From Sulfurospirillum diekertiae (GTDB lineage: Bacteria > Campylobacterota > Campylobacteria > Campylobacterales > Sulfurospirillaceae), in contig NZ_CP023275.1 in assembly GCF_002309535.1 (NCBI RefSeq), positions 496,001-560,000 of the forward strand: a stretch of DNA of 64,000 nt, read 5' to 3'. A program made the translations under genes and the position numbers. This document shows, one piece after another, positions 2,197 to 61,900 of this stretch. Every line of letters starts with the position of its first letter. Position 1 is the stretch's first letter. A model generated the notes under the pieces. It was not told the DNA's origin. It did no database searches and saw only the letters and a program-made list of their open reading frames with translations.

Positions 2197-2208
2197 TTTA
2201 CATGTAAA
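2197..2208. repeat. TTTACATGTAAA palindrome, copy 1
   Basis: Lies between the convergent nuclease and GGDEF-EAL genes. The dyad extends to 18 bp (2194-2211, ATC...GAT) and could fold as a 7-bp stem with a CATG loop. Confidence 0.95.
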
Positions 2209-2212
2209 GATA

Positions 2213-4120
2213 CTAGGAGGCTATGGTAGGAGTTGGTTCAGCAAAAAAGAGACCTTGTGAATACTCAATTCCTAAAGATTTTATTTTGTCATAAATCATC
2301 TCATTACTAACATACTCTGCAATAACTTTGATATGCGCTTCTTTGGCAAAAGAGACAATATTTTTAACCAGTAAAAATGAAATTTTGTCATCCAAAATCT
2401 TTTGAATGATAGTGCCATCAATTTTAATAAAGTCAGTTTTAATTTCTGTAAGATAGATAAAATTGGAGTAGCCACTACCAAAATCATCAATCAAAATTCT
2501 ATATCCTAATCTTTTGAGCATCAAGAGATTGTTTTTTGCATCATCTCGATGGGTTATCTCTTCGCTCTCTATGATTTCTAATCCCATTCTATGAGCGATA
2601 TTTTTTTGCTTTGCATAACTCTTTAAAAGAGTAAGGATTGCTTCATCAATAATATCATGTGGATTTAGATTGATATTAATAGCAATAGATGGTTTTTCAA
2701 TTAACTGTTCATAACAAATACGTAATACTTCTTTCGTAATGTTTCGTAAAACAAAAGTTCCTCTGATCGTTGGGAGAATTTTTTCAGGTAAAATAATAGA
2801 GCCATTTTTATCAATAATACGAAGTAAAGCTTCATAGTGCGACAATTTTTGTGTTTGTGTATCAACAATGGCTTGATAGTAGCAAAGGATTCTATTTTCT
2901 TCAATGGCTGCTTTTATTTCATTGAGTGATAAGCATACATCTTGGGTATATTCATTTTCATCGTAAATATCGATCGTATTTCTACCTTTATTTTTAGCAT
3001 TGTAGAGTGCTATGTCGGCTAACTTAAAGGCTTCAGAAAAGGTTCTTGATTTGTATGGTACTAAATTAACCCCAATAGAGACAGTGACATTGATCGATTC
3101 ATTGGGAGAAATATGAAATCTCGTTTCTTGGATGGTATGAGAAATCCTTTCAATAACATTCAGTGCGCTTAAGTGATCGTCTCTGCGTGTTTTGGCTAAG
3201 ATTAAAAATTCTTCACCTCCATAACGTATGACAATATCATCTTTATGGCGAATAGCGAGTAAGATCGTGTCTGCAACTTGTTTTAAAACTTTATCACCGG
3301 CATCATGCCCGTAGGTATCATTGACTTTTTTAAAATAGTCAATATCCAAAGTTGCTAAAATATAGTCATTGAGATTAATGAAATCTTCATATTTTTGAAG
3401 ATAATTTCGGTTGTAGACATTGGTGAGTTTATCAATAAAAGCAGTTTTTTTAACGGCTCGAAATCGTATTGCTTGAATAATTACAAAGAGCAAGATAATA
3501 AATATAACTGCCATAACTGCAAAAATACCATTTTGTATCATATGAATGATTTGGTTAATTTCTTCAATTTTTTGTATGGAAAAATCAATGGCCAAAATAA
3601 GTTCCACATTGTTTTGATACATAATGGGAACAAGGTAGCTCATTGAGAGTTGTTGGAGCATTGAATGCCGTATAATCAAAGCTTTTTTCTGAGCGTAGAT
3701 ATCAAGCCATTCTGGACTATCAGCATCAAATTTTTGGTCGATAAATGCCTTATCTTCATGCTTAGAAGCATCTCCAAGAAATCTAAATACGCCTCGGCTA
3801 TCTCTGTATAAAAGATAGGCATATTTTATATTGGGGGTGATTAAGATTTTTAAGCGCTCTTCAATTTTATGTTGAAGGGCACTATTAAGTTTGATATCAG
3901 AAGTATAATCGGTACTCTCTTTTAAGAGAGATTGGATTGATGAAGCACTGTTATTGGTAATCGAAAATACATCAGAAATTGAAATTTCAAATAGCTTTTT
4001 TTCAATGCTTTTTTCCAAATTGACTGTTGAAAAAAGCAATAGTGCTAAAATGGTTGCAATAATAAATGTTGGAATAATGAAATAGAAAGGATATTTTAAA
4101 AAGAGCTTGTCGCTATCCAT
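2213..4120 (-). CDS. Membrane-bound GGDEF-EAL protein (cyclic di-GMP synthesis/breakdown)
   Basis: 635 residues. A transmembrane helix at about 12-30 and another near 200-220 enclose a periplasmic sensor region of about 165 residues. A GGDEF domain follows with an intact RYGGEEF active site, then an EAL domain with the catalytic EALLR and DDFGSGYS motifs. Both halves therefore look able to act, making or hydrolysing c-di-GMP. The inhibitory I-site RxxD is shifted by one residue (RHKDD before IVIRYGGEEF) and may be non-canonical. It is last in a leftward operon, one base after the stop of a small periplasmic protein that may control it. Confidence 0.93.
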   Translation of the reverse strand: MDSDKLFLKYPFYFIIPTFIIATILALLLFSTVNLEKSIEKKLFEISISDVFSITNNSASSIQSLLKESTDYTSDIKLNSALQHKIEERLKILITPNIKYAYLLYRDSRGVFRFLGDASKHEDKAFIDQKFDADSPEWLDIYAQKKALIIRHSMLQQLSMSYLVPIMYQNNVELILAIDFSIQKIEEINQIIHMIQNGIFAVMAVIFIILLFVIIQAIRFRAVKKTAFIDKLTNVYNRNYLQKYEDFINLNDYILATLDIDYFKKVNDTYGHDAGDKVLKQVADTILLAIRHKDDIVIRYGGEEFLILAKTRRDDHLSALNVIERISHTIQETRFHISPNESINVTVSIGVNLVPYKSRTFSEAFKLADIALYNAKNKGRNTIDIYDENEYTQDVCLSLNEIKAAIEENRILCYYQAIVDTQTQKLSHYEALLRIIDKNGSIILPEKILPTIRGTFVLRNITKEVLRICYEQLIEKPSIAININLNPHDIIDEAILTLLKSYAKQKNIAHRMGLEIIESEEITHRDDAKNNLLMLKRLGYRILIDDFGSGYSNFIYLTEIKTDFIKIDGTIIQKILDDKISFLLVKNIVSFAKEAHIKVIAEYVSNEMIYDKIKSLGIEYSQGLFFAEPTPTIAS

Positions 4121-6484: not shown

Positions 6485-6648
6485 CTGTTTATTCAGTGAT
6501 TCCTTCTATTTGATACTATATGCATATGGGACATATTAGTATAGGGAAGAAGAGCTTAATACTATATTTTTATATCACAAAAAGATTACAAGGCTGAGGA
6601 TGGTTTATTTTACTTGTTTGGGAAGCAGTGAAAATCAAATAGCTTTAA

Positions 6649-6660
6649 ATTACATGTAAA
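6649..6660. repeat. ATTACATGTAAA, one-mismatch copy of the palindrome
   Basis: In the gap between the receptor operon (start 6484) and the 3' end of nadD-rsfS (6674). Nothing else is recognised in this gap. Confidence 0.85.
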
Positions 6661-6673
6661 GAGAAGGCGTAGA

Positions 6674-7018
6674 CTATTCTACGCTTCTTACTTTTTTCAT
6701 TTCTTCTTCTCTCTCTTTGAGAAAGAGTTCTAAGTTATATTTGAGACGATATTGCGGTGTCATAAGGTGAATGAGAACATCGCCCATATCAATCACTGTC
6801 CAGTTGTCATCAGCATCAACATTTAAAAAACTTTCACCTGCGCCTTTAAGCTCTGTTTTGAGATGATCTAAAAGTGAAAGCCCGTGTCGCTCACCCATTG
6901 TCGTTGCTATAACAACAGTGTTAACAAAATAATCTTTGCCACTCATATCAAATACTTGTATATCTTCTGCTTTTTTGTCGCTTAGAGCAGTTACGATTCT
7001 TTCAATTCTATTATCCAT
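6674..7018 (-). other. rsfS: RsfS segment of the fusion with its own possible internal start
   Basis: 114 codons from an in-frame ATG. The Shine-Dalgarno-like AAGGA upstream and the full RsfS-family length suggest either an internally initiated separate product or a recent loss of the stop codon between the two genes. Which product the cell makes cannot be told from sequence. Confidence 0.5.
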
Positions 7019-7555
7019 TGGATTCCTTGTATAAAACGCTATCACTTCATTTTTGATGGCTTTTGGAATAAATCTTGGGTCCAAAAATGAGCGGAGCTTT
7101 GAAGAACTGATATTAACATTAATTGGTAAAATTTTCAAGCCTTTTGGAGGAGTAAACTCTCCTCTTGGTGCTACAACAAATTCAACAAGGTTACAAAGCT
7201 CATCGTAGCGGTTCCATTTAGGAAGTGCAGAAAAACTATCACTTCCAACGAGCAAAAAGAGTTTAGCTCCTGGGTACAAACGCTTTACATGTAAAACAGT
7301 TTCGATGGTGGGAACTTGTCTTTTTTGATCACATTCATATGAAAAAATTTCGACTTTCTCCATACCTTCAAACATCTTAGCCAGCCATTTTTGGCGCATA
7401 GCAGCGGGAGCACAAAAACTTTCTTTAAAAGGGCTGAGGTACGTAGTAACAACTAAAAGCTTATCAATATCAAGAATTTCAAGGGCTTTTTTAACAATGA
7501 GTTCGTGTCCAGAGTGAGGAGGATCGAAAGAACCTCCAAAGATAGCTATGTTCAA
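6674..7555 (-). CDS. nadD: Nicotinate-nucleotide adenylyltransferase fused to ribosome silencing factor (NadD-RsfS)
   Basis: 293 residues in one open frame. Residues 1-178 are NadD, which makes deamido-NAD from nicotinate mononucleotide and ATP. They carry the nucleotidyltransferase motif GGSFDPPHSGH and the SSSKLR motif. From residue 180 (MDNRIERIVTAL) the sequence is RsfS/YbeB, which binds ribosomal protein uL14 and blocks subunit joining (VNTVVIATTMGERHG, DDNWTVIDMGDVLIHLM). These are normally separate adjacent genes; here no stop divides them. The RsfS methionine codon is at 7018-7016 and has AAGGA five bases upstream, so a separate RsfS may also be made. The gene diverges from gap. One palindrome copy is read as LHVK in the NadD half. 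Confidence 0.92.
   Translation of the reverse strand: MNIAIFGGSFDPPHSGHELIVKKALEILDIDKLLVVTTYLSPFKESFCAPAAMRQKWLAKMFEGMEKVEIFSYECDQKRQVPTIETVLHVKRLYPGAKLFLLVGSDSFSALPKWNRYDELCNLVEFVVAPRGEFTPPKGLKILPINVNISSSKLRSFLDPRFIPKAIKNEVIAFYTRNPMDNRIERIVTALSDKKAEDIQVFDMSGKDYFVNTVVIATTMGERHGLSLLDHLKTELKGAGESFLNVDADDNWTVIDMGDVLIHLMTPQYRLKYNLELFLKEREEEMKKVRSVE
7284..7295. repeat. TTTACATGTAAA palindrome, copy 2 (inside nadD)
   Basis: Read on the minus strand as the LHVK of VLHVKRLYPG in NadD. Confidence 0.95.
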
Positions 7556-7617: not shown

Positions 7618-7666
7618 TCTAAAAGCTAGATGGATTAAAACGACTATTATATCAAAAGGAATACCT

Positions 7667-9881: not shown

Positions 9882-11430
<1,549 letters not shown>

Positions 11431-12594: not shown

Positions 12595-12606
12595 TTTACA
12601 TGTAAA
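12595..12606. repeat. TTTACATGTAAA palindrome, copy 4
   Basis: First of two copies 22 bp apart, intergenic. Confidence 0.95.
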
Positions 12607-12616: not shown

Positions 12617-12628
12617 TTTACATGTAAA
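12617..12628. repeat. TTTACATGTAAA palindrome, copy 5
   Basis: Second of the pair, 7 bp before the nusA stop codon; the dyad extends outward with C...G. Confidence 0.95.
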
Positions 12629-15580: not shown

Positions 15581-16196
15581 AGAGTTTAAACGTAAACTCT
15601 TAGTGTGGATTGTTCCACCTCTTATTTATGCATTGATTAAACTTTTATTCTTTACATGTAAAAAGAAATTTTATCGTCCGCAGAATGGTTCTGCTACGCC
15701 GAGTATCTATGTTTTGTGGCATGGCGAGATACTGATGGCAGCCGCAGCTTACACATACTATACGAAACGTGTAGAGGCTGATACCATTGTCAGTAGTCAT
15801 TTTGATGGTGAATTGGCCGCAAGGCTAATGCAGCTTTTTGGTGGAGGAACGATACGTGGAAGCTCATCCAAGGGAGGGGCTTCTGTTTTAAGGCAGGCGT
15901 TAAAGTCACTTCAAAAAGGACGCGATATCGCTCTCACCCCTGATGGACCAAGAGGGCCAAGACACAGTGTAGCCGATGGTGCCGCAGTGCTTGCAATGAT
16001 GAAAAAAGTACCGATTATTACCATGAATTGCAATCCAACCTCGTATTGGAGCATGAAGAGTTGGGATCACTTTTGTATTCCTAAACCATTTTGTACGATA
16101 GAATTCTATTTTGGTAATCCTTTCTATGTTCATGAACTCTCACTTGAAGAGGCAAAATCATTGATCCAAAAGCGACTTTTAGAGCATGCGGTGTAA
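15561..16196 (+). CDS. DUF374 (LpxL-like) lysophospholipid acyltransferase family protein
   Basis: 211 residues. An N-terminal hydrophobic segment ([19 protein letters not shown]) is followed by acyltransferase blocks ([14 protein letters not shown] with the expected His, [38 protein letters not shown]). DUF374 proteins are thought to act in lipid A or phospholipid acylation at the inner membrane; the exact substrate is unknown. It overlaps the end of miaB by 20 bp. A palindrome copy is read as FTCK right after the membrane segment, at a spot with no evident constraint. Confidence 0.85.
15651..15662. repeat. TTTACATGTAAA palindrome, copy 6 (inside the acyltransferase gene)
   Basis: Read as FTCK. 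Confidence 0.95.
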
Positions 16197-18450: not shown

Positions 18451-19423
18451 GATCAATATGCGAAGTAAAGAGGTAAGAGCGAATCTTTGAAGGAATGCGT
18501 GCTTGACGGCACCTCTCTTTAAATTTTTTATCCATAGCTTGCTTGAGATACGGTGCTATCAAAATCATTTTTTCTTCAAAACAGACTGCAATTTTTCCAC
18601 CCACCACACAGCTCTTCGTTTTTAAAATCTCATCCCTTTGCGCTTTTGATAAGAGAATACCGAGGAGTTTGACTATTTTATCAATATGACGAATATTGAT
18701 CAGGTCATCTTCATCTTTGGGAAGGAGAAATAAGTCTTTGATGCGAGTAGCCTGATGGGGTAAAAGACGTTTAGCATCTTCTTCCATATAGCGAAAACTT
18801 TTAGCGATACCCTCCTCATAATTTTCGATCAACGGATTGGCATAGTGATGGCGAAATTGGTTGCGTACATGTTTGAAAGAGGTGTTGCTTTCGTCAGTAA
18901 AGTAAGTAATTTTATAATTTTCAAGATAGGCTTGAAGTGTTTTTTTGTTGACATGTAAAAGAGGTCGGATCATCGTGTAATGCTCTCGCTCTTCTATCTC
19001 TTGCATACCCAATAATTCAACAAGCCCAGCACCACGAGTTAGCTGCATTAAAAACCATTCAAGTTTATCGTTTAAATGGTGTGCGCTTAAAAGTGAATTG
19101 TAGCCATGTTCTTGGATGATGTTTTCAAAAAAGGTATAACGCTCTTTCCTCGCAGAGTGTTCAAAATTGGCATTTTCAAGTTTACATGTAAAGGTGAAAA
19201 GTTGTTTATTGTAAGTATCGGCAAGTTTTTTTGCATACGCTTCTTCGACGTCACTTTGCTCTCTTGTTTGATAATTCACATGGGCAATATCAAAAGGGAT
19301 ATTCTGCTCAAGCAGTAAAAAGAAGAGGGCGGTAGAGTCTCCACCGCCTGAGAATGCCAAAAGATTTTTGGATGTTTTAAGAAGGTCAATCGTTGCGTTA
19401 TGCAACAGAGGTAATGGTTGCAA
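18419..19423 (-). CDS. tilS: tRNA(Ile)-lysidine synthase TilS
   Basis: About 334 residues. It joins lysine to C34 of the CAU-anticodon tRNA-Ile so that it reads AUA. The PP-loop ATP site is [13 protein letters not shown]; the family usually has SGGVDS, so the Gly is a conservative change. [20 protein letters not shown] is the second family block. The start is uncertain because no ATG fits. TTG 19423 has GGGAG 9 bases upstream, TTG 19405 overlaps the rimO stop, and GTG 19459 would overlap rimO by 62 bp without a good site. It is last in panC-rimO-tilS and holds one exact and one near palindrome copy. Confidence 0.92.
18948..18959. repeat. TTGACATGTAAA, one-mismatch copy (inside tilS)
   Basis: Read on the minus strand as LHVN in TilS. 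Confidence 0.7.
19181..19192. repeat. TTTACATGTAAA palindrome, copy 7 (inside tilS)
   Basis: Read on the minus strand as FTCK in TilS. Confidence 0.95.
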
Positions 19424-20716: not shown

Positions 20717-21538
20717 TTAAATCCATAAATTATCAATGAGGCGAGTCGTGCCAACTTTGGCGCAGACGAGAATGATGGAGTTGCCTATTTCAATGGTTTC
20801 TATTGTATCAAAATCACGATTTAAAATTTCCACGTATTCTACATGTAAAGGTGCTAGGGTGCGCAACATTTCAGCTTTAATAGCCTCAATATGACGCTCT
20901 CCAGCGATAATGTCATGGGTTGCCACTTTGAGGGATTCGCACAGTAAAAGTGCCTCTTGGCGCTCTTTTGCATTTAGGTACACATTGCGACTAGAAAGCG
21001 CTAAATCATCATCTTCTCTGACGATTTCACAAGGAACAATTTCCAAATCCAGAAAGAGGCTTTTAACCATATTTTGAATCAAATAGAGTTGTTGCGCATC
21101 TTTTTTACCAAAATAAGCCCGTGTTGGTTTGGTCAAGTTAAACAGTTTCAGAACCACACGTAAAACACCATCAAAATGACCAGGGCGAGCTAGTCCTTCA
21201 AGAATATAGGCTTTAGCGCTTGGTGCTAGGATACTTGGCTCGAGAGAGGAGTACATTACTTCAGGGGTCGGCATAAATAAAATACTTACGCCTGCAAGTT
21301 CACAAATTTTAATATCGGCTTGAGTACGCTTAGGGTAGGTATTAAAATCTTCTCCTACTAGAAATTGGGTAGGGTTGACAAATACAGAGACAATGGCATG
21401 ATCATTTTGAGCTACAGCATTTTGCATTAAAGAGAGGTGTCCATTGTGCAATGCTCCCATAGTTGGAACAAAGCCTATGGTACCTTTTAACTCGCTTCTA
21501 GCGAGCTTGAGTTCATCAATCGTTTTTACTATTTTCAT
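20717..21538 (-). CDS. panC: Pantothenate synthetase
   Basis: About 273 residues. It condenses pantoate and beta-alanine with ATP to make pantothenate for coenzyme A. Class I nucleotidyltransferase fold with [15 protein letters not shown] (HIGH-like) and ALSSRNVYL (KMSKS-like). It also has [10 protein letters not shown] and [11 protein letters not shown] start it at ATG 21538 ([10 protein letters not shown]); an upstream GTG at 21547 adds three residues. First gene of the panC-rimO-tilS operon, divergent from prfB. Confidence 0.97.
20838..20849. repeat. TCTACATGTAAA, one-mismatch copy (inside panC)
   Basis: Read on the minus strand as LHVE in PanC. Confidence 0.7.
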
Positions 21539-25762: not shown

Positions 25763-27438
25763 TAAACCTTTTGGTGAATTTGAATTTTTTGTGGGTCAAA
25801 AAGCTCTGTTGCTCTTTGAACGAAAGGGGTATTAAGAACTTCTTTAGCGTCAATTTCCCGTTGACCTGCCATTATGGCTCCTGCGGCACAGCTGTCGCTT
25901 TGAGGTGCATCTTCAAACGCTACACTTTCGATCATCGAAGCGCTTTGATCGTTTGCGCTCAGTTCTGCTTCACTCATTTGCAATTCATAGTTAGGATCAA
26001 ACGAAGGTTCAGGTTTTGGCTCAGGTGGAAGCACGTGCATTTTAGTGATTTTTATTTTTGTTTCCAAACCAAAAAGCTCTTGGACAAAGTGCTTGATAAT
26101 GCTGTAATGAGTATTCAGCGTTTTACTCGCTTCTCCTTCTGCACTTGAACTGAGCATCAGCTGTTCTTCTGAAAAACTATCAAACCGAATATGCTTTTTA
26201 AAACAATCACCTAGCTCCGCGTTACGATCGAGCAATTTGTCGCACAGGCGGGCAAAAAGCATCTCCGAAGTGACGCCTTGATCTTTTACATGTAAAGATG
26301 TTTCTTCAACTTCCACAGGAGTTGTTGGTGCTTCTGAAACATCTGTTTTAGCATGAGCCGTTGTTGGAAGGCGAAATTTTTCATTTTCAAGTGAGTCGAT
26401 CATCTCTTCAATGGTTTTAATGTTGGTTGCTTCAATCATCTTAAAGAAGATTAACGAGAGCACAAAACCGTTGTTTGCATTGATGTACAAAAGACTTTTA
26501 GATTCACTGAGAATCTTGAAAAAACGTTCATACAGCAGTGTTGAAAAACGGCGATCTTGTGCAAAAAAGGCATTTTTAAGATAAGCAATTAACTCATCTA
26601 TGACGATTTCGCACTCATAACTTTCAAGCTCTTTAATAATGCCGAGCATCTCATTTTTATTGCCACTTAAAATCGTTGTAAAAATTGTTTCAAGTTGATT
26701 AGGATCTAAAAGCCCTAACATCGTTGCAACATTCTCAGGCGTAATGTAGCCTTTGGAATAAATAATGGCTTGATCCATGAGAGTCAACGTATCGCGCAGT
26801 GAACCATTGCCTGCACGGCTGAGCATCTCTAATGCCTCTTTTTCATATTCAATATTTTCAAGATGGAGAATATGGCAAAGGTGATTGACGACGTCACTTT
26901 GCTTAATCTGTTTAAAACGAAAGTGCTGTGCACGCGATAAAATTGTTGCTGGAAGCTTTAGAGGATCAGTGGTTGCAAGGATGAATTTCACATAACTTGG
27001 AGGCTCTTCCAGTGTCTTTAAAAGCGCATTAAACGCTTGCGTGGTCAGCATATGGACTTCATCGATAATGAAGATTTTAAAACGCGCACTGGTAGGTTTG
27101 TATTTGGTACTTTCAATGAGTTCACGAATGTCATCAATACCACGATTGGATGCTGCGTCCATCTCGATGATGTCGATATGACGGTTTTCGTTGGCACTTA
27201 AGCAGTGTTCACACACTTCGCAGGGTGTTGAGGTTGGACCTTGCTCACAGACAAGAGCCTTAGCAAAGATACGTGCTGTTGAAGTTTTTCCACTTCCACG
27301 AAGCCCAGAAAAGAGATAGGCATGAGAGAGTCTATCTTGGTTAAGTGCTAAACTAAGCGTTTGAGTAATCGACTCTTGGCCGATTAGCTTATCAAAGGAT
27401 GAAGGACGATATTTTAGAGCAAGTACTTGATGTGACAC
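25762..27438 (-). CDS. dnaX: DNA polymerase III subunits gamma/tau
   Basis: 558 residues. Clamp-loader ATPase of the replicative polymerase. AAA+ motifs are SGLRGSGKTSTARIFAKAL (Walker A), IIDEVHML (Walker B) and TLEEPPSYVKFILATTD (sensor 1). The zinc site has cysteines in CEQGPTSTPCEVCEHC. The C-terminal third (about 370-558) is the variable tau region, rich in Glu/Pro (PPEPKPEPSFDP). I did not locate a slippery frameshift site. It holds a palindrome copy in the variable region, read as LHVK. Confidence 0.97.
   Translation of the reverse strand: MSHQVLALKYRPSSFDKLIGQESITQTLSLALNQDRLSHAYLFSGLRGSGKTSTARIFAKALVCEQGPTSTPCEVCEHCLSANENRHIDIIEMDAASNRGIDDIRELIESTKYKPTSARFKIFIIDEVHMLTTQAFNALLKTLEEPPSYVKFILATTDPLKLPATILSRAQHFRFKQIKQSDVVNHLCHILHLENIEYEKEALEMLSRAGNGSLRDTLTLMDQAIIYSKGYITPENVATMLGLLDPNQLETIFTTILSGNKNEMLGIIKELESYECEIVIDELIAYLKNAFFAQDRRFSTLLYERFFKILSESKSLLYINANNGFVLSLIFFKMIEATNIKTIEEMIDSLENEKFRLPTTAHAKTDVSEAPTTPVEVEETSLHVKDQGVTSEMLFARLCDKLLDRNAELGDCFKKHIRFDSFSEEQLMLSSSAEGEASKTLNTHYSIIKHFVQELFGLETKIKITKMHVLPPEPKPEPSFDPNYELQMSEAELSANDQSASMIESVAFEDAPQSDSCAAGAIMAGQREIDAKEVLNTPFVQRATELFDPQKIQIHQKV
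26285..26296. repeat. TTTACATGTAAA palindrome, copy 8 (inside dnaX)
   Basis: Read on the minus strand as LHVK in the variable linker region of DnaX. Confidence 0.95.
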
Positions 27439-29217: not shown

Positions 29218-29895
29218 ATGAATGATTTAGTGCATTTGGCAATTATTATGGATGGCAATGGCAGATGGGCACAGCGTCAAGGCAAAGAGCGCTCTTTTGG
29301 ACACAAGGAAGGCGCTAAAAAGGTACGAGAGATTACCAAATATGCTGCAAAAATGGGCATCAAATACCTCACACTCTACGCCTTTAGCACTGAAAACTGG
29401 AATCGCCCAAAAGCCGAAGTTAGCGTTTTGATGAAACTGCTTTCCAAGTATTTGCACAGTGAAATTCCTATACTTCTTGAAAATAATATCTGTTTTGATG
29501 TCATTGGTGATATGAGCAAACTTTCATCTTCTTTGCAAAAAGAGATCGCTTATGCGAAAGAGGCAACACAGCACTGCACGGGGCTAAGGCAAATCTTGGC
29601 GATCAATTATGGTGCCCAAGATGAGATTCTTCGCGCCATCAATAAATCTTTACATGTAAAGGGTGAAATAACCAAAGAGATTTTAGAAGCGCATCTTGAT
29701 ACAGCAGGCATTCCGTCTGTGGATCTGCTCCTTCGAACAGGGGGCGATTGTCGTCTTTCGAATTTTTTACTATGGCAATCTGCCTATGCGGAACTTTTCT
29801 TCACAAAAACCTTATGGCCTGAATTTTCAATGGGAGAATTAGAAGCTATTATTTCCGAATATAAAACATCTGAAAGACGATATGGCAAAGTTTAG
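29218..29895 (+). CDS. uppS: Undecaprenyl diphosphate synthase (isoprenyl transferase)
   Basis: 225 residues. It builds the C55 lipid carrier for peptidoglycan and LPS from farnesyl and isopentenyl diphosphate. Conserved blocks are IIMDGNGRWAQRQGKERSFGHKEG, YAFSTENWNRP, LLLRTGGDCRLSNFLLWQSAYAELFF and LWPEF. It is slightly shorter than most relatives, as in Campylobacter. A -10-like TAAAAT at 29176-29181 precedes it. It carries a palindrome copy read as LHVK in the variable segment. Confidence 0.97.
   Translation: MNDLVHLAIIMDGNGRWAQRQGKERSFGHKEGAKKVREITKYAAKMGIKYLTLYAFSTENWNRPKAEVSVLMKLLSKYLHSEIPILLENNICFDVIGDMSKLSSSLQKEIAYAKEATQHCTGLRQILAINYGAQDEILRAINKSLHVKGEITKEILEAHLDTAGIPSVDLLLRTGGDCRLSNFLLWQSAYAELFFTKTLWPEFSMGELEAIISEYKTSERRYGKV
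29649..29660. repeat. TTTACATGTAAA palindrome, copy 9 (inside uppS)
   Basis: Read as LHVK in UppS. Confidence 0.95.
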
Positions 29896-33000: not shown

Positions 33001-33072
33001 GGCTACGGCATCGCACGCCCCATGCACCCAGATGCTATCATCGATTGGAAAAAATCCAGTTCTTACATGTAA
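30022..33072 (+). CDS. Sensor protein with PhnD-like binding domain, PAS domains, GGDEF and EAL
   Basis: 1016 residues. In order: signal peptide (ILIVLFCLCQYVSAEE), a periplasmic PhnD/phosphonate-type solute-binding domain (about 20-290, RLGILAFRPKEQALLQWQPF, VTDTNSLGGYQM), one membrane helix (about 309-330), two PAS domains, GGDEF with SRLGGDEFVAVL, and EAL with SVEALIRWQHPEQGF and DDFGTGYSSLSYL. It probably binds a small ligand in the periplasm and alters c-di-GMP inside. The catalytic motifs of both domains look intact. The stop codon TAA lies within a near-copy of the palindrome, giving the C-terminus SYM. Confidence 0.93.
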   Translation: MKKIILIVLFCLCQYVSAEEALRLGILAFRPKEQALLQWQPFATYLQNAIGKPISLHIYNYPEFTQAVANHEVDIILTNPGHYIVLKNKFKLSAPLVTQITQKDHFTLTQFAGVMFTRHDSPILTLHDMEYKQIAVTDTNSLGGYQMQAYELANSGIAPHDTRLVITGMPHDKVIEAVLSHKADVGFVRTNVLEDMIQEGKLALSDIKIINEQTDPKFPFIHSTKLYPEWPLVVVPNFDEHIARDLTVALLALPSQSEAATRAHIYGFTVPADYKGVEDALRMLRVPPFEEAPNFTLADFWSRYSNYITGILTVFLVFLMSSAQLYRQNKQIRQNEKYLLSAQDSLQSTIDAIPDTLFEMSLEGVYFRVGRAHAHFSSMLENFIGKNVNEIYPSHVALVFMEALQEANKKGRAFGFQYALEGTHKLFWFELSVSKKKESHDMAHFIVLSHDITDRKETEAKLKLAASVFTYAREGIMITNASGEIVEVNDTFTCITGYTHEEVIGHNPRLLKSGRQGDSFYKQMWQSLLEKGHWYGEISNRRKSGEVYIQMTSISAVYDEKRVIQSYVALFTDITTMKEHEKQLEYIAHYDALTSLPNRVLFADRLREAMVQTERRKKELAVVYLDLDGFKAINDQYGHHIGDELLVIIAERMEEALRQGDTISRLGGDEFVAVLTDLESLEECRPILDRLLQATSDPIVINDNIIQVSSSIGVTLYPKDGVDAEQLLRHADLAMYQSKQSGKNRYHFFDIEYDKAIQQQNASLGNILSAIANDEFILYYQPKVNLKTHELISVEALIRWQHPEQGFLLPHAFLPIVEDHVLSIKLGEWVIERAFKQMSDWIKKGLPLAVSINVGARQLQDANFTDYIQTMLLRYPEVPSHLIILEILETSALEDMVHVSQIMHACKALGVRFALDDFGTGYSSLSYLRKLPIDILKIDQSFICNLLHDRDDLAIVEAIVGLSKAFDLRVVAEGVETQEHAELLLKHGCELAQGYGIARPMHPDAIIDWKKSSSYM

Positions 33073-33073
33073 A
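33062..33073. repeat. CTTACATGTAAA, one-mismatch copy providing a stop codon
   Basis: Overlaps the last codons of the PhnD-GGDEF-EAL gene, read in the third frame as YM-stop. Confidence 0.85.
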
Positions 33074-34483: not shown

Positions 34484-34507
34484 GGTTTTACATGTAAAAC
34501 AAGGAAG
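34474..34507 (+). repeat. Imperfect direct repeat, left copy (flanks the lipocalin gene)
   Basis: Shares ACCTGCGTA, then AGG plus the palindrome, then AGGAAGC with 35162-35198, about 31 matching positions. The left copy includes the last codons and stop of hcp. Confidence 0.6.
34487..34498. repeat. TTTACATGTAAA palindrome, copy 10
   Basis: Just after hcp; part of a longer direct repeat shared with 35162-35198. Confidence 0.95.
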
Positions 34508-35161: not shown

Positions 35162-35198
35162 ACCTGCGTAGAAGGTTTACATGTAAAGATGAGGAAGC
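35162..35198 (+). repeat. Imperfect direct repeat, right copy
   Basis: Partner of 34474-34507. It carries the CCTGCGTA that in the left copy encodes the end of Hcp, although here it is non-coding. Confidence 0.6.
35176..35187. repeat. TTTACATGTAAA palindrome, copy 11
   Basis: Between the convergent lipocalin and PD-(D/E)XK genes, followed by a small hairpin at 35195-35210 (AAGCCT/AGGCTT) with a short T-run. Confidence 0.95.
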
Positions 35199-38018: not shown

Positions 38019-38030
38019 TTTACATGTAAA
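38019..38030. repeat. TTTACATGTAAA palindrome, copy 12
   Basis: On the minus strand its right arm TAAA runs into GG, so it forms part of the Shine-Dalgarno sequence of the NERD gene. Confidence 0.95.
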
Positions 38031-38971: not shown

Positions 38972-38983
38972 CTTACATGTAAA
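38972..38983. repeat. CTTACATGTAAA, one-mismatch copy at the ppk2 ribosome binding site
   Basis: On the minus strand it reads TTTACATGTAAGGAG. The departure from the perfect palindrome creates the AAGGAG site. Confidence 0.85.
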
Positions 38984-40756: not shown

Positions 40757-40768
40757 TTTACATGTAAT
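40757..40768. repeat. TTTACATGTAAT, one-mismatch copy
   Basis: In the divergent spacer between the S4 gene and petA. Confidence 0.85.
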
Positions 40769-42768: not shown

Positions 42769-42780
42769 TTTACATGTAAA
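42769..42780. repeat. TTTACATGTAAA palindrome, copy 14
   Basis: Between the convergent small membrane protein and hemJ; dyad extended with C...G. Confidence 0.95.
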
Positions 42781-43355: not shown

Positions 43356-43367
43356 TTTACATGTAAT
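43356..43367. repeat. TTTACATGTAAT, one-mismatch copy
   Basis: In the divergent spacer between hemJ and the DEAD-box helicase gene. Confidence 0.85.
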
Positions 43368-43432: not shown

Positions 43433-44674
43433 ATGCCATTTTCCACGCTCAAACTCTGCCCACAAATTCTCCAAGCACTGAGTGAAGTAGGACATACCAC
43501 TCCCACGCCGATTCAAAAAAAAGTGATTCCGCTTGTGTTGAAACGTAAAGATGTTTTGGCGAGGGCGCAAACGGGTAGTGGCAAGAGTGCTTCGTTTGTC
43601 CTGCCGATGTTAGAGCTTTGGAGTGCGAACAAAGGCGAGGGAAAAGCGAAGATCAAGGCATTGGTTTTAACGCCCACCAGAGAGCTGACCGTGCAAGTCG
43701 CTGAAGCGTTTACTACCTTTGGAAAATTTTTACATGTAAAGCCAAAGGTGGTGAGTGTCATCGGTGGCGAGAAGATCGGCGAGCAACTTTTTGACATCCA
43801 ACAAGGGTGCGACATCGTAGTCGCAACATCGGGTCGTTTGCTTGACATCATGAGCAAAAAGCAGATCAATCTCTCCAGTGTGGAGTTCTTTGTGCTTGAT
43901 GAAGCGGACAAGATGCTTGACCTTGGTTTTGAGCAAGAGTTAAGTTCCATTCTAGAAGCCTTACCAAAAGAACGCCAAAATCTTCTTTTCTCCGCGACGT
44001 ATCCCGAAAAGATGCAAACCATTGCTTCTAAAATAACCAAAAGTGCCGTGGAAGTGAGCATCGAAGCTGAAGCGCCAACGGTGGAACTGATCAAACAACG
44101 AGCTATTGAAGTCAATAAAGAGAACCGTGCTCCACTGTTGCGTCAGTTACTGCGTGAAAACAAATGGGAACTCGTCTTAGTTTTTATGGCAAACAAACGC
44201 GCTGCCGATAATATCGCTGTGAAGTTTCGCAAACATGGTTTTTTAGCCGAATCGTTTCATGGCGACCTCATTCAAGAAGACAGAGCGTGGACGTTGAAGT
44301 CGTTTAAAGAGCGCAAGATTCGCGTTTTGTTTGCCACGGACATCGCTTCACGTGGACTGGATATTGATGATGTGAGTTGTGTCATTAACTTTGATTTACC
44401 GCGTGCAACCGAAGACTACATCCACCGCATCGGACGAACAGGGCGTGCGGGGAAAGAGGGTGTGGCGATCTCATTTATCGACCATGAGGACAAAGCACAT
44501 TTTGCGTTGATCGAAAAACGTTGTGGCATAAAACTTAAAAAAGAGCAGATCAAAGGCTTTGAGCTTGAAGGTGAGGCACCTCAAAAAGAGAAAGGGAGCG
44601 CGCCCATCAAAGGCAAACGTAAAAGTAAAAAAGACAAGTTAAGAGAGCAAGCGGCTTGCAAACCTGCTCTTTAA
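43433..44674 (+). CDS. DEAD-box RNA helicase (RhlE-like)
   Basis: About 413 residues. All core motifs are visible: Q-motif region PTPIQKKVIP, motif I AQTGSGKS, Ia PTREL, II DEAD, III SAT (LLFSATYPE), IV VFMANKRAAD, V ATDIASRGLD and VI HRIGRTGRAG. The basic C-terminus (PIKGKRKSKKDKLRE) helps RNA binding. I prefer ATG 43433 with AAAGGA upstream; ATG 43403 lacks a site. It probably remodels ribosomal or messenger RNA. It holds one palindrome copy read as FLHVKPK. Confidence 0.95.
   Translation: MPFSTLKLCPQILQALSEVGHTTPTPIQKKVIPLVLKRKDVLARAQTGSGKSASFVLPMLELWSANKGEGKAKIKALVLTPTRELTVQVAEAFTTFGKFLHVKPKVVSVIGGEKIGEQLFDIQQGCDIVVATSGRLLDIMSKKQINLSSVEFFVLDEADKMLDLGFEQELSSILEALPKERQNLLFSATYPEKMQTIASKITKSAVEVSIEAEAPTVELIKQRAIEVNKENRAPLLRQLLRENKWELVLVFMANKRAADNIAVKFRKHGFLAESFHGDLIQEDRAWTLKSFKERKIRVLFATDIASRGLDIDDVSCVINFDLPRATEDYIHRIGRTGRAGKEGVAISFIDHEDKAHFALIEKRCGIKLKKEQIKGFELEGEAPQKEKGSAPIKGKRKSKKDKLREQAACKPAL
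43729..43740. repeat. TTTACATGTAAA palindrome, copy 15 (inside the DEAD-box gene)
   Basis: Read as LHVK. Confidence 0.95.
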
Positions 44675-44697
44675 ATCTTTACATGTAAAGATTTTTA
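44673..44697. terminator. Terminator-like 22-bp palindrome between convergent genes
   Basis: AAATCTTTA-CATG-TAAAGATTT with a T-run on the plus side: a 9-bp stem with a CATG loop between the helicase stop and the YcaO stop. Confidence 0.5.
44678..44689. repeat. TTTACATGTAAA palindrome, copy 16
   Basis: Core of the 22-bp palindrome at 44673-44694. Confidence 0.95.
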
Positions 44698-46317
44698 AGC
44701 GACGATAGACGCCTTCTTAACTTCGAGCCTATCGTACATATCGAGGATATTGACATAGTGCTGGTGCAAGCTAACGTCGATGAGGTAGGCTTTACCATCT
44801 AAGATGTTCACTGCGTGTTCAACGTTTTCTTTACCAAAAATGTCCCATAGGGCACTTTCATATTCACTCCAGATAAGATTTTGTCCCCTTAACGAGAGGA
44901 TTTCACACAGAAGTTTGCTCATAGGATTTTGACTAAAGCCAAGGAGCATGTGTGCCTCTTCGTAATTTTCCAAAAGGAGATTGACTTGTGCTTTAAGGTC
45001 AATCATCTGAAAATTTTGCTCAAAAATAACACCGATGTATTTTTCCATATTGAGTGAATCTTCTAATGGCTCAATGGTTTCTAAAAGCGTTTCGTGATTT
45101 TCTTCTTTGAAGTTCAGCACTGCATGACGGATGAATTTCCCACAGTTACGATTTTGGTAGACCATATCGTCGATAGGATAGACCTCAGAAATACTTGGCA
45201 CAATCATGTGGCATGAGTAAAAGTCTAAATAAGTGTATTCACGTAGGTAAATCTCTTTGTTCATAGATTTGACGATGTTGCACAAGAAGGCGTACTCCGC
45301 TTCGCTTCCCTCGTCCTTATACTTCCATGGAGCATATTCAAAACTTTTGGTTGCATTTAAAAAGCCAAAGCCTATTTTTCCGTTAGAATCGATGAAGTGT
45401 GCTTCAAGGTTAAACGTGTCTTCTACGATGCTCATGTCAAAGGTTGGCATCTCAAAAGCATCAAGGTTTTCAACACCTCTTCCTTGCATGAGTTCGCTCA
45501 TGGTGCGCTCTAGGCTTACTTCTAAAATGGGATGAGCACCAAATGAGACAAAGAGGGTGCCATTGCGTGGGTTGATGAGCGAGATAGCCGTTACGGGGAA
45601 TTTTCCACCCAAAGATGCATCCAGAATTTCAACAATGAAGCCTGCTTTTCTTAGTTCTATCACATCCGCATGCAGTTTCGGGAAAGTTGCGATGATACTC
45701 TCTGGATATATTGGAAGTGCATAACCATTTTTGATGATCTCAATTTTAGCATGACGTTCAAAGATTTCACTCAGAGCCTGAACTTTGGCTTCATCAGGCG
45801 TATTGCCACTGGCAAGTCCATTGCTGACGTAAAGATTGCTGAGGATATTTAAAGGAATGTAAACTTGCTCATTTCCAAAAAAGCTTTGAAACGGGAGTGC
45901 GACGATCTTATCGGTATAGTCGCTGTTAAAATCAACTAAGTCTTCGTTGCTCATTTCGTTGGATGGATTGTAGATTACATGTAAAGCAGGATTGAGGTAA
46001 TTTCCGCCAAATTCAAACACCTTTTGGTCTGGATAGTACGCACGATTGGGAAGGTGAAAGTCGATAAAACAGTTGTTGGTTTGAAGGCGCTCGATGTACT
46101 CACCCAGCGCGCTTGCTTTCGACGCCCCTGAAAGGGTGCCTTTGCCATTAGAATAAATATGATTGGGGGCTTCGGTGGAAGCTAAGTTTACTGAGTAGCA
46201 GTTTTGAAGAGGATGCTTTTCTGTTGCAAAGGTAATGCCACACCTAAGGTCACTTAAGATGGTTTCCATTTTTAAAATAGAGACTTCGAGTGGGGCGTTT
46301 TTTGAGAGTATATTCAT
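44695..46317 (-). CDS. ycaO: YcaO-domain protein (E. coli YcaO type)
   Basis: 540 residues from ATG 46317, with AAGGA upstream; an open frame back to 46440 adds a hydrophobic stretch without homology. YcaO proteins use ATP to activate peptide backbone amides. The blocks NGKGTLSGASKASALGEYIERL, GNTPDEAKVQALSEIFERHAKIEI and AAISLI-like region with FGAHPILEVSLERTMSELMQGR match the E. coli YcaO group, which has a C-terminal extension and has been linked to RimO-dependent methylthiolation of S12. rimO is present in this window. No precursor peptide or dehydrogenase gene lies nearby, arguing against a peptide natural product. Confidence 0.9.
   Translation of the reverse strand: MNILSKNAPLEVSILKMETILSDLRCGITFATEKHPLQNCYSVNLASTEAPNHIYSNGKGTLSGASKASALGEYIERLQTNNCFIDFHLPNRAYYPDQKVFEFGGNYLNPALHVIYNPSNEMSNEDLVDFNSDYTDKIVALPFQSFFGNEQVYIPLNILSNLYVSNGLASGNTPDEAKVQALSEIFERHAKIEIIKNGYALPIYPESIIATFPKLHADVIELRKAGFIVEILDASLGGKFPVTAISLINPRNGTLFVSFGAHPILEVSLERTMSELMQGRGVENLDAFEMPTFDMSIVEDTFNLEAHFIDSNGKIGFGFLNATKSFEYAPWKYKDEGSEAEYAFLCNIVKSMNKEIYLREYTYLDFYSCHMIVPSISEVYPIDDMVYQNRNCGKFIRHAVLNFKEENHETLLETIEPLEDSLNMEKYIGVIFEQNFQMIDLKAQVNLLLENYEEAHMLLGFSQNPMSKLLCEILSLRGQNLIWSEYESALWDIFGKENVEHAVNILDGKAYLIDVSLHQHYVNILDMYDRLEVKKASIVA
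45974..45985. repeat. ATTACATGTAAA, one-mismatch copy (inside ycaO)
   Basis: Read on the minus strand as LHVI. Confidence 0.75.
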
Positions 46318-55157: not shown

Positions 55158-55193
55158 TCTCTCTTTACATGTAAAAGTGTAAAGAGAGATTTT
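55158..55193 (+). terminator. Hairpin after livJ containing a palindrome copy
   Basis: TCTCTCTTTACA (55158-55169) and TGTAAAGAGAGA (55178-55189), 12-bp stem, followed by TTTT. Likely a partial terminator or mRNA-stabilising end. Confidence 0.7.
55164..55175. repeat. TTTACATGTAAA palindrome, copy 18
   Basis: Its left half forms one arm of the livJ hairpin and its right half lies in the loop, so the palindrome and the larger hairpin are alternative folds. Confidence 0.95.
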
Positions 55194-58642: not shown

Positions 58643-58915
58643 AAAATCCACAGCTTCTGTTTACATGTAAATCTCTCTTAGCGGAGGTTTACTATGTATA
58701 TTCTATCCTTTTATAAAACCTCGTCCCATTGATACCAAACAATCACAAGTTATTGTCGTAGATATTGTCCTTAAGGGAATGACAAATGAAATATAATAGT
58801 GCATCTTTTTTTGTTTTTTTAAATTCAACTACGCTCTTCAGGGAACATTTATGATTTATAAATTATTTACTCTAAAAAGGTAACATAACTTAATTTTTCC
58901 AGACAAGGGAGTTTT
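58643..58915. other. Spacer between livF and ccsBA
   Basis: 273 bp. It contains a palindrome copy at 58660 and an A/T-rich stretch before ccsBA that should hold its promoter. I find no credible gene. Confidence 0.6.
58660..58671. repeat. TTTACATGTAAA palindrome, copy 19
   Basis: 18 bases downstream of the livF stop. Confidence 0.95.
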
Positions 58916-61900
58916 ATGGATTTTGTATTGAAGCAGATTTTTTCGATGAAATCGGCTATCATCCTTATGGTACTTTTTGGACTTTTTTGTGGTGTAGCAA
59001 CGTTTATTGAAAATGATTTTGGTGTCGAGACAAGTTGGGCACTGATCTATACTGCATGGTGGTTTGAACTGATTCAAGTTGCGTTAGCACTCATTTTAAT
59101 CTTTAATATTATTCGATATAAACTCTACAAACTCGATAAATTACCTGCATTTTTATTTCACATTAGTTTTGTTTTTATTCTTATTGGTTCTGGCATCACG
59201 CGTTATTATGGCTTTGAGGGAACTTTACATGTAAGAAATGGTATGCAAGAGGACAAAGTTTTATCCAGTAGTACTTTTGTTCAAGTGAGTGCATTAAAAG
59301 AAAATAAAACCTATAGCTATAGTCATCCTCAACTTATTTCTCGTGCAGGAGGCAATGGCTTTTCATTCTCATTTGATGTAGGTGGTGACAAAGCAGAAGT
59401 AAAATTTAAACAATATCTCCCCAATGCTACTGCAAAAGTTGTCGATGATCCACAAGGTGTTCCAATGATTTCAATGATGCTCAGTGGGTATGGCGAAAGT
59501 CTCAATGTTGTTTTAAAAGAGGGCGATACTTACGAGTCAAGTGAATACATTTTTAGTTTTAATGCCCAAGCTCCTCAAACCAAGAAGACCATTATCCAAT
59601 TCACATTAGAGGATGGGAAATTTTATTTTTACTCCAAAGAAAAAATTGCATGGTTTAAAATGGCTGAAAACAAGCGTGGGGAATATGCAGCTGATAATAA
59701 GCAAGATTTTGTAATAGGGCAGCTTTATACCATTGGAAATGTGAATTTTGCACCACGTTATATTGGCCTTAAAGGGCAAGAAAAAGTTGTTGAAGATAAA
59801 AATCCTATGATAAAAGCAAATGGAGTATCGGCCATTATTGTCGATGCAAAATACAAAGGCGAAACAAAAGAAATCGCTATGTTTGGACAAGGAAAAGGGA
59901 GCGAAGGTGAGCCAACTAAGATCCTGATCGCAGGTGTCCCTTTCATTTTTGAGTGGGGTGCTCAAATTTTCACACTGCCTTTTGCAATCCAACTCAATGA
60001 ATTTCAGCTGGATCGTTATGCTGGATCAATGTCTCCAATGTCTTATGCGAGTGAAGTGGAAGTGGTTGACAGTGAAAAGGGGGTTCATGTGCCTTTTCGT
60101 ATCTATATGAATCACGTACTGGATTATCGTGGATTCCGTTTTTTCCAAAGTTCGTACGATAAAGATGAAAAAGGAACAATTTTATCTGTCAATAATGATC
60201 CTGGAAAGCTACCAACTTATTTTGGATATCTTCTTTTAGGCATTGGACTTTTCTTTAATTTACTCAATCCAAAAAGTCGTTTCCGCAAACTTGCAGGAAT
60301 GGTACAAAAAGATATGACTAAGGTAAAATCTGTCTTGGTGGCACTTATCTCAGTATTTGTTTTAAGCCAAGGAAGTGCACTACATGCCTATACTACGGAA
60401 GAATATATAGGATTTTTAAAACAGTACGATGTGAAACATGCTGATAAATTTGGGCGTGTTTTGGTGCAAAGCGTTGATGGAAGAATTAAACCAATCGATA
60501 CAATTTCAACAGAACTTCTCAATAAAATTTATGGTGGGTCCACCTATGAAGGGCTGAGTGCAAATCAAGTAGCCCTTAGCATGATGAGTTCTCCTAGCGA
60601 ATGGCAAGGCCTACCTATTATCAAAGTATTTCATCCTGATTTGAAAAAAATTATTGGTATTCCTGAAAATCAAAAATATGCCTCTTTCAATGATTTTTTT
60701 GAAAAAGAGGGTGATCATGCTTATAAGTTAACCAAATATTCCGAAGAAGCTAATCGTAAAAAACCAGCGCTTCGTAACCAATTTGATAAAGATATACTCA
60801 AAGTAGATGAGCGTGTTAACATTTGTTATATGGTTTATACAGGTGAAGTCTTTAAAATGATTCCTAAGCAAAACGATATTAACAAAAAATGGTTTGCACC
60901 TCAAGAAGCGGTTATGAACTTTTCCAAACAAGAAGGTGATGAAGTGAGAGCACTTCTTGGTGGATATTTTGATTCTATTAGCGAAGGGTTGGAAAAAGGA
61001 AATTGGGAAAATGCCAACAAAGCTATTGATAAACTTCAATCGTATCAAGAGCAGTATGGTTCTGAAATTATCCCAAGTGATAGTCGTATTAAAGCAGAAA
61101 TTTTCTTTAACCATGCGAAAATATTTGCACGATTGACCCCTGTGTATCTTCTCAGTGGCTTAGTCTTACTCTGTTTTATTTTTGCAAAAATGGTCAAATC
61201 CTCTTTAAATATTAAGCTGGCAACAAAAATTGTTTTAACCATTAATTTTATTGCTTTCTTAGCCCATACTGGAGGGCTCGGACTAAGGTGGTACATCTCT
61301 ACACATGCTCCTTGGAGTGATGGATATGAGTCTATGATCTACATTGCCTGGGCAATAGCACTTGCGGGTATCTTCTTTTCTCGCCAGTCTGTGGTTTCTC
61401 TTGCATTGACATCCATTCTTGCTGGAGTAACGCTTTTTGTGGCACACCTTAGTTGGATGGATCCACAAATTACCAATCTTGTACCCGTTTTAAAATCATA
61501 CTGGCTCAATATCCATGTTTCAGTTATCACAGCAAGTTATGGTTTCTTAGGATTATGTGCGCTTCTAGGCTTCTTTACTTTAATTTTATTTATCATAAGA
61601 AGCACAAAACCAACCAAACGTAACGTTGAAATTGAACGCAACATTATTGAAGCAACACGTATTAATGAAATGGCGATGATTTTAGGACTGAGCCTTTTAA
61701 CCATTGGTAACTTTTTAGGGGGTGTTTGGGCCAATGAATCGTGGGGCAGATACTGGGGATGGGATCCTAAAGAGACGTGGGCTTTAGTTTCAATTCTCTT
61801 TTATGCAGCTGTGGTGCATTTAAGATTTATTCCCAAATTTAATACACCTTTTGCGTTTGCAGTTGCTTCAACGATTACTTTCTCTTCCATTATTATGACT

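What the first reader, a model, noticed from the sequence alone, without database searches (positions are those of the whole stretch)
2197..59235. Highly iterated palindrome TTTACATGTAAA throughout the window
I found 19 exact copies (starts 2197, 7284, 10493, 12595, 12617, 15651, 19181, 26285, 29649, 34487, 35176, 38019, 39061, 42769, 43729, 44678, 49906, 55164, 58660) and 10 one-mismatch copies (6649, 18948, 20838, 25464, 33062, 38972, 40757, 43356, 45974, 59224). My rough estimate from base composition is about 0.02 exact copies per 64 kb. Twelve exact copies are intergenic and seven lie inside unrelated genes (nadD, tpiA, acyltransferase, tilS, dnaX, uppS, DEAD helicase). An operator for one regulon would not be placed like that. 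Possible roles: a HIP1-like repeat, a DNA uptake or self-recognition sequence (pilus-like transformation genes and cinA are in this window), a site for a nucleoid or chromosome-organising protein such as Noc or SlmA, or a modification site around ACATGT. I know of no described element of this sequence.
Basis: partly seen in the sequence, partly recalled or inferred. Interest (0 to 1): 0.88.

Follow-up and report, generated by a model that had tools for sequence, protein, structure and literature searches.

The report
Genome-wide TTACATGTAA palindrome in Sulfurospirillum
Sulfurospirillum and some relatives carry one short DNA palindrome hundreds of times, kept in the same places between species and decayed in a few; it is probably an address word read by an unknown protein, perhaps to recognise their own DNA.

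Summary
All 29 listed sites are there. The complete 2.81 Mb genome has 774 exact TTTACATGTAAA; the reversed word has 0, and third- to fifth-order Markov models expect 0.6-33. The tight part is TTACATGTAA.

Half the copies lie in genes. Between genes the word is densest by far in convergent gaps, not in promoter-side DNA. It is kept in place: 11 of 12 sites intact in motif-rich relatives at 81% identity (random 10-mers: 22%). At the same divergence one sister genome kept 0 of 14 and another 4 of 20, about background. So a trans-acting system seems to maintain it and to have been lost at least once.

In 397 Campylobacterota genomes TACATGTA stands far above its control only in scattered groups. 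Two sampled genomes of a sibling genus use CTACATGTAG.

No reader protein was identified. An operator network, a ParB/Noc paralogue, MutL-dependent HIP formation and one solitary D12 methyltransferase as general driver did not pass tests here. My best reading is a palindromic DNA-uptake or self-recognition word (about 0.4).

The parts
2197..2208 (.). exact TTTACATGTAAA, in an 18-base convergent gap
   Evidence: ORFs
6649..6660 (.). one-mismatch copy ATTACATGTAAA, 10-base core intact
7284..7295 (.). exact copy inside nadD-like ORF 6674-7555
   Evidence: 10-mer in 7 of 12 aligned sequences, G000 included
10493..10504 (.). exact copy inside tpiA
   Evidence: 10-mer in 5 of 12
12595..12606 (.). 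exact copy, first of a pair in the convergent gap before nusA
   Evidence: 10-mer in 8 of 12
12617..12628 (.). exact copy, second of that pair
   Evidence: 10-mer in 8 of 12
15651..15662 (.). exact copy inside DUF374 (acyltransferase-like) gene
   Evidence: 10-mer in 8 of 12
18948..18959 (.). one-mismatch copy TTGACATGTAAA
19181..19192 (.). exact copy inside tilS-like gene 18419-19459
   Evidence: 10-mer in 7 of 12
20838..20849 (.). one-mismatch copy TCTACATGTAAA
25464..25475 (.). one-mismatch copy TTTACATGTAAC
26285..26296 (.). exact copy inside dnaX
29649..29660 (.). exact copy inside uppS-like gene
33062..33073 (.). one-mismatch copy CTTACATGTAAA overlapping the end of ORF 30022-33072
34487..34498 (.). 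exact copy, 3 bases past the stop of ORF 33152-34483
35176..35187 (.). exact copy, convergent gap
38019..38030 (.). exact copy, intergenic (same-strand gap)
38972..38983 (.). one-mismatch copy CTTACATGTAAA
39061..39072 (.). exact copy, 4 bases past the stop of minus-strand ORF 39077-40453
40757..40768 (.). one-mismatch copy TTTACATGTAAT
42769..42780 (.). exact copy, convergent gap
43356..43367 (.). one-mismatch copy TTTACATGTAAT
43729..43740 (.). exact copy inside DEAD-box helicase gene
44678..44689 (.). exact copy in a 20-base convergent gap
45974..45985 (.). one-mismatch copy ATTACATGTAAA
49906..49917 (.). exact copy, intergenic (same-strand gap)
55164..55175 (.). exact copy, 13 bases past a stop
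58660..58671 (.). exact copy, 17 bases past a stop
59224..59235 (.). one-mismatch copy TTTACATGTAAG

Best explanation
TTACATGTAA (usually within CTTTACATGTAAAG) is a genome-wide address word, read as double-stranded DNA by a dimeric protein not identified here, and its copies are actively maintained. Shown: it is placed without regard to gene function, kept in place between species beyond coding need, decayed to background in two sister genomes, and different in its flanks between genera. Inferred: the dimeric reader itself, and that it is a DNA-uptake or self-DNA recognition factor of natural transformation, so that DNA carrying the word is preferentially taken up and recombined. That would restore and spread intact copies, as proposed for the uptake sequences of Neisseriaceae and Pasteurellaceae, but with a palindromic word.
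For: Scale: 774 exact copies per genome and TACATGTA 1362 against 32 for its reversed control, about one per 2 kb. Sharp core: one-base variants at positions 2-6 total 9 against 111 exact in 464 kb. Held in place: 298 of 583 pairwise comparisons keep the 10-mer (7.8% for random 10-mers; pairs not independent); 11 of 12 sites against 22% background at 81% identity (the seven relatives' sequence there is one 16 kb locus each). Selection on DNA, not only protein: where the amino acid is kept, the motif codon is kept in 61 of 70 cases, 31.7 expected (three coding sites). Placement in G000 per kb: 10.9 in convergent gaps, 5.6 within 40 bases after a stop, 0.6-1.8 in divergent gaps, 0.27 in genes. 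Exact 12-mer rare (1 in 40 kb) in a region with relaxase, coupling-protein and defence genes. Dialects: CTCTACATGTAGAG in G008 and G002. ComEC family in 41 of 44 family genomes. Decay in G020 and G028.
Against: Published uptake sequences are not palindromes (PMC1939737, passages). No receptor was found, and no transformation of Sulfurospirillum turned up in the paper searches (listings only). ComEC is also present in genomes that lost or lack the word (G020, G010). The related Campylobacter jejuni discriminates by methylation of a short common site rather than by a rare word (PMC8468864, PMC8627207, passages). Spacing is random, not even (KS p 0.59, CV 1.23, first 100 sites). The mobile-gene region is poor in the exact 12-mer but still has 8 TACATGTA in 40 kb, where the genome average gives about 19. 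Of 12 genes with two or more core sites, the 10 scanned show no clear DNA-repair bias, although one looks like mutY with 4 sites.
Confidence: 0.4

Rival explanations
1. Binding site of a chromosome-organising or nucleoid protein: a dimeric protein binds about a thousand palindromes to compact, segregate or mark the chromosome.
For: Palindromic sharp site typical of a dimer; sites kept in place; placement blind to gene function.
Against: No ParB/Noc paralogue follows the motif: 33 of 33 genomes have ParB_N, 30 with one match; G015, G038 and low-copy G033 have more, G000 has one. No trend along the chromosome in 18 spread 20 kb samples: those between 1.1 and 1.7 Mb hold 4-9 exact copies, the others 1-10 (ori and ter not mapped), so unlike Noc, SlmA or MatP as recalled. 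A structural protein needed by the cell would not be expected to be so patchy.
Confidence: 0.25
2. HIP-like word created by methylation: a solitary adenine methyltransferase marks the CATG core, and a methylation-linked process multiplies the extended palindrome (Elhai's model, or a CtsM-like uptake mark).
For: All 15 genus-g1 genomes with the 62-100% identical MTase have 258-792 exact copies. The 9 without it have 14, 62, 112, 124, 144, 235, 271, 293 and 412, the last two in assemblies 77% and 86% complete. No restriction gene among the neighbours I annotated. Motif-rich G042, G038, G381 and G361 carry members on long branches (motif-poor G003 has one too). C. jejuni precedent CtsM (passages).
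Against: The MTase is neither necessary nor sufficient for the core word: TACATGTA is 1201 in G024, 1124 in G035, 782 in G391, 611 in G168, 379 in G008, 368 in G333 and 246 in G346, none with a full-length match, while other genomes with a 53-55% relative have almost none (G273 0, G288 0, G406 0, G217 0, G266 2, G062 8). G024 still has a sharp core, if less so than G000 (14 exact with 4 variants at positions 2-6, against 111 with 9). G008 (no relative) and G002 (54% relative) share one dialect. MutL family not found in 28 of 28 genomes, found in 11 of 14 controls.
Confidence: 0.12
3. Chi-like recombination signal, or a self mark that protects against a nuclease.
For: Density of one exact copy per 3.6 kb and wide placement.
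Against: Known Chi words are non-palindromic and strand-oriented (recalled); strong intergenic preference; no enzyme tested.
Confidence: 0.12
4. Operator of a very broad transcription regulator.
For: A 12-base palindrome looks like an operator; divergent gaps still hold more per kb than genes (0.6-1.8 against 0.27).
Against: Highest density by far in convergent gaps; about half the copies inside genes; in same-strand gaps exact copies lie near the stop (median 17 bases) rather than the start (59; 27 sites).
Confidence: 0.04

Closest known systems
DNA uptake sequences of Neisseriaceae and Pasteurellaceae (DUS/USS)
   Same: Hundreds to thousands of copies of a 9-12-base word, many inside genes, more in non-coding DNA than an unbiased distribution gives, dialects between related species sharing a small core (passages of PMC3630211 and PMC1939737; start of the abstract of PMC2346458).
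   Different: Palindromic here; no receptor known; different phylum; no uptake data. PMC3630211 does report overlapping DUS pairs with dyad symmetry in Simonsiella muelleri (passage).
HIP1 and alternative HIPs of cyanobacteria (Elhai 2015, PMC4390886; abstract, sections 2.3, 2.5.3 and 2.6 and the first part of 3.4 seen)
   Same: One highly iterated palindrome per genome, alternatives in relatives, one-off copies concentrated at the outermost positions.
   Different: AT-rich 10-12-base word; not explained by the candidate methyltransferase; no MutL found; strongly intergenic.
CtsM methylation mark of Campylobacter jejuni (passages of PMC8468864 and PMC8627207)
   Same: Same order, an adenine methyltransferase without a partner nuclease named, self-DNA discrimination.
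   Different: RAATTY has 28,482 sites in a C. coli genome and is not a rare iterated word; our MTase link fails outside the genus.
Noc, SlmA, MatP, ParB site sets (recalled)
   Same: Palindromic dimer sites spread on the chromosome.
   Different: Far fewer sites and regional bias (recalled); no matching ParB paralogue found.

Membership tests
DNA uptake sequence | 9-12-base word in hundreds of copies, far above expectation | tested here: met
DNA uptake sequence | dialects between related species around a common core | tested here: met
   TT-flanked core in most sampled genomes, CTCTACATGTAGAG in G008 and G002
DNA uptake sequence | non-palindromic word (stated in PMC1939737) | tested here: not met
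   perfect palindrome
DNA uptake sequence | a competence system is present | tested here: inconclusive
   ComEC family in 41 of 44, but also in genomes without the word; other competence genes not searched
DNA uptake sequence | specific receptor (ComP type) | not tested
DNA uptake sequence | the word raises uptake or transformation | not testable with these tools
   needs bench work
HIP (highly iterated palindrome) | one dominant over-represented palindrome, alternatives in relatives | tested here: met
HIP (highly iterated palindrome) | one-off copies at the outermost positions | tested here: met
   position 1 has 57, positions 2-6 together 9
HIP (highly iterated palindrome) | a methyltransferase for the word or its core wherever the word is abundant | tested here: inconclusive
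   not met for the D12 enzyme (against 70, 71) nor for PF01555 in G000, G035, G168, G008, G032; other MTase classes not searched
HIP (highly iterated palindrome) | mismatch repair as the proposed generator (Elhai's model, not a definition) | tested here: not met
   MutL family 0 of 28
Noc/ParB-type site | an extra ParB-family protein in motif-rich genomes | tested here: not met
   one match in 30 of 33, G000 included
CtsM-type methylation mark | solitary MTase needed for the word | tested here: inconclusive
   not met for the D12 enzyme; methylation itself and other MTases not tested
Transcription regulon | sites concentrated in promoter regions | tested here: not met

The most novel reading that the evidence does not exclude
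An unidentified dimeric DNA-reading protein, scattered among Campylobacterota, has written the same palindromic word about 350-1,700 times into the genomes of distantly related hosts (Sulfurospirillaceae and at least two other families of the order). The word is held in place by selection or conversion, differs in dialect between genera, and rots when the system is lost. This would be the first palindromic self-DNA address, possibly a palindromic uptake word, in this phylum.
Probability: 0.4. Interest if true: 0.88.

Novelty: new variant of a known kind. Interest (0 to 1): 0.76.

Why it matters
I know of no iterated uptake or address word described in Campylobacterota (recall, plus the searches listed in the full report); C. 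jejuni discriminates by methylation and H. pylori does not discriminate in that way (PMC8468864, passages). That makes a long-standing question, what makes and keeps highly iterated words, directly testable in environmental bacteria, and could bear on gene flow and genetic tools in dehalogenating Sulfurospirillum.

Tried and rejected
Solitary D12 methyltransferase as the driver: looked strong in the first sample, weakened out of sample (G034 has it with only 258 copies, G029 lacks it with 412) and failed as a general cause when the 8-base core was counted. I looked for MTases because of Elhai's paper, so the within-genus association is exploratory, and the genomes share ancestry. PF01555 MTases: no match in G000. 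ParB/Noc/KorB analogy from recalled site sequences: one ParB_N match in 30 of 33 genomes, extras not following the motif. Loss of ComEC as the cause of loss: not seen. Hairpin or terminator reading: only a few sites extend into long hairpins (mean pairs in the next 8 positions: 3.4 convergent, 2.9 same-strand, 2.4 in genes, 2.1 by chance). Close pairs: 5 gaps of 100 bases or less against 2.3 expected, weak. GTCTAGAC in L098, first taken for a dialect, is a CRISPR-like array. GCGATCGC in four loci of Helicobacteraceae or unplaced Campylobacterota contigs (L132, L134, L135, L144) is at most twice a third-order Markov expectation (10 against 5.4, and 7 against 5.5, 9.5 and 13.1). TATCATGATA in G010 is a weaker signal (13 against 1.1) and may be unrelated. 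My ORF caller misses some genes (the tilS-like one in the window), so gap classes are approximate.


Full report
WHAT WAS CHECKED. The 29 window sites are exactly as reported (shuffles mean 0.59, maximum 4). The genome holding the window is one contig of 2,814,086 bases with 774 exact TTTACATGTAAA and none of the reversed word. Markov models of order 1-5 built on 464 kb (20 stretches plus the window) expect 0.75-33 copies per genome, or 0.6-5.0 with exact copies masked. The window's pgk protein finds Sulfurospirillum records among its nearest relatives. G015, the same species, has a second contig; since a passage of PMC8865925 says plasmids were found only in strains ACSTCE and ACSDCE, the species may be 'Ca. 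S. acididehalogenans', which is inference.

ANATOMY. Aligned on 203 TACATGTA cores with full flanks (204 in the sample), the symmetrised consensus is C49 T75 T93 then TACATGTA, that is CTTTACATGTAAAG with information fading outward. One-base variants of the 12-mer are 57 at position 1 but 3, 2, 1, 2, 1 at positions 2-6, against 111 exact. ACATGT outside TACATGTA is rarer than chance: of 276 ACATGT, 204 are in TACATGTA and 72 outside, where base composition gives 154. The word is therefore TTACATGTAA, and nearly all-or-none.

PLACEMENT. By a simple ORF caller, 57 of 111 exact copies are inside genes, 51 between genes and 3 across gene edges, in DNA that is 86% coding; at least one, window 19181 in a tilS-like gene, was wrongly called intergenic. 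In genes 41 of 57 lie in the frame giving Leu-His-Val and 16 in Phe-Thr-Cys-Lys; the third frame has a stop. Density of the 10-mer per kb in G000: 10.9 in convergent gaps (11 of 22 gaps have one), 5.6 within 40 bases after a stop in same-strand gaps, 0.9 in the rest of those gaps, 1.8 and 0.6 in near and far parts of divergent gaps, 0.27 in genes; 10 of 177 sites fell in no class. In other Sulfurospirillum sequence: 8.4 convergent (11 of 32 gaps), 2.3, 2.4, 0.7, 1.7 and 0.25; 18 of 159 in no class. Convergent highest and genes lowest is repeated; the excess just after stops is not. In g4, G361 and f8 numbers are small (0-2 convergent sites each). For 27 same-strand exact copies in G000 the median distance is 17 bases to the stop and 59 to the start (KS p 0.02). 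Divergent gaps are not avoided relative to genes, but nothing points to promoters. Gaps between the first 100 sites fit an exponential (p 0.59, CV 1.23). Eighteen 20 kb samples along the chromosome show no trend (the two samples of the next sentences left out). A 39.5 kb stretch without exact copies (33.6-73.1 kb) lies in a region that holds TrwC relaxase, TrwB coupling protein, HATPase/Z1/AIPR/C5-methylase and Fic genes, but also ordinary ones such as a molybdopterin oxidoreductase, an ilvD-like gene and a ribonucleotide reductase subunit. The two samples covering it have 1 exact 12-mer and 8 TACATGTA in 40 kb, against about 11 and 19 at the genome average, so it is poor in the word rather than free of it.

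MAINTENANCE. In an alignment of window 6600-19960 with 11 relatives (L076 covering only part), 298 of 583 pairwise comparisons of a 10-mer site are exact, against 7.8% for random 10-mers (pairs share ancestry). Each member of the 12595/12617 pair is present in 8 of 12 sequences. Where the residue is unchanged, motif codons are unchanged in 61 of 70 cases, 31.7 expected from the same genes (three coding sites, 11 relatives, not independent). The G020 and G028 remnants carry changes at central bases too. I read this as loss of the maintaining system in these genomes, whose sites now drift; whether one loss or two was not tested.

DISTRIBUTION AND DIALECTS. 12-mer counts in 44 family genomes: genus g1 14-792, g2 0-8, g3 58, g4 7-310, g5 27-346. 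In 397 phylum genomes the 12-mer is high in few others: G361 338, G381 226, G168 86, G333 62. The 8-base core against its reversed palindrome shows a wider reach: g1 109-1727 (15 genomes, control 27-50), g4 443-1297, g5 1019-1110, G008 379/18, G361 1480/27, G346 246/25, G263 91/21, G221 848/57, G168 611/41, G354 527/42, G234 221/56, G366 113/49, G391 782/54, G156 608/30, G333 368/19, G201 99/29, G381 675/29. Most of the rest lie near or below control, including G010 (28/25); some show small excesses at low counts (for example G280 61/29, G313 54/21, G320 50/2, G309 45/8, G312 42/5, G414 36/8). Low 12-mer counts in some f8 genomes thus reflect different flanks, not absence. In samples of 15 genomes a TACATGTA-centred word is the top palindrome in 14; the flank is TT in most and CT in G008 and G002. 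G020 retains a weak remnant (12 against 1.6). S. cavolei has a looser flank, T then any base before ACATGT.

CANDIDATE MECHANISMS TESTED. (a) Methyltransferase. G000 has one D12 adenine methyltransferase and no PF01555 match; some of its phage relatives are annotated as ulcer-associated adenine-specific methyltransferase, which I recall as the CATG-specific hpyIM/NlaIIIM group. The neighbouring genes that I annotated in five genomes include no restriction gene. All 15 g1 genomes with the close version have 258-792 12-mers, the 9 others 14-412. But by core count G024, G035, G168, G391, G333, G008 and G346 are rich without a full-length match, and genomes with a 53-55% relative can have almost no copy. 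It may help in the genus; it is not the general cause. Only D12 and PF01555 families were searched, so another class of enzyme is not excluded. (b) MMR-driven HIP: MutL family 0 of 28, 11 of 14 controls. (c) ParB paralogue: 33 of 33 have ParB_N, 30 with one match; extra matches in G015, G038 and G033. (d) ComEC: 41 of 44; the three without a match are assemblies 81%, 86% and 90% complete. Presence therefore does not separate rich from poor.

READING. The data ask for a trans-acting reader and a benefit or drive attached to each intact copy wherever it lies. Uptake words have this signature: many copies, intragenic and intergenic, dialects. One passage of PMC3630211 reports DUS positions around folP shared between two species. 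Sharpness is comparable: 446 one-mismatch per 774 exact here, in the sample mostly at the end positions, against 764 per 1471 in H. influenzae (PMC1939737, passage). Palindromy, the absence of a receptor and of uptake data keep the confidence at 0.4. A nucleoid protein is the main rival.

NOVELTY. Searches of the held library for the 12-mer and 8-mer, for Sulfurospirillum with palindromes, natural transformation or methylation motifs, and for uptake sequences with Epsilonproteobacteria or Sulfurimonas found no description; for these I saw listings only, plus passages of PMC8865925. The library lacks most subscription journals, so prior description elsewhere is possible.

Noticed in passing
L098 3279-4191: GTCTAGAC repeated at 64-66 base steps: a CRISPR-like array in a Campylobacteraceae MAG contig, near the pgk region.
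   Followed up: yes
G015 contig C2, 1692-2600 (locus L156): The same-species genome carries a second, about 55% identical D12 methyltransferase on its second contig, possibly a plasmid.
   Followed up: partly
L169 (G020:C1 about 68,000-69,000): A 686-residue ORF that starts like a C5 cytosine methylase and holds a D12-type DPPY motif: apparently a fused methyltransferase, in the genome whose palindromes have decayed.
   Followed up: no
G000 C1 33,001-73,000 (L032, L033): Island-like region with HATPase, Z1, AIPR, C5 methylase, Fic, TrwC and TrwB genes, poor in the exact 12-mer.
   Followed up: partly
G010 samples L060-L062, L252, L467-L470: ATCATGAT (45 against 12) and TATCATGATA (13 against 1.1) over-represented in a genome without TACATGTA excess.
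   Followed up: partly
L326 300-560: Viral contig with clustered TTTACAC and CTTTACATGTAAAG repeats; looks like a local repeat region.
   Followed up: no
window 30022-33072: One ORF joins a phosphonate-type periplasmic binding domain, PAS domains, GGDEF and EAL.
   Followed up: no
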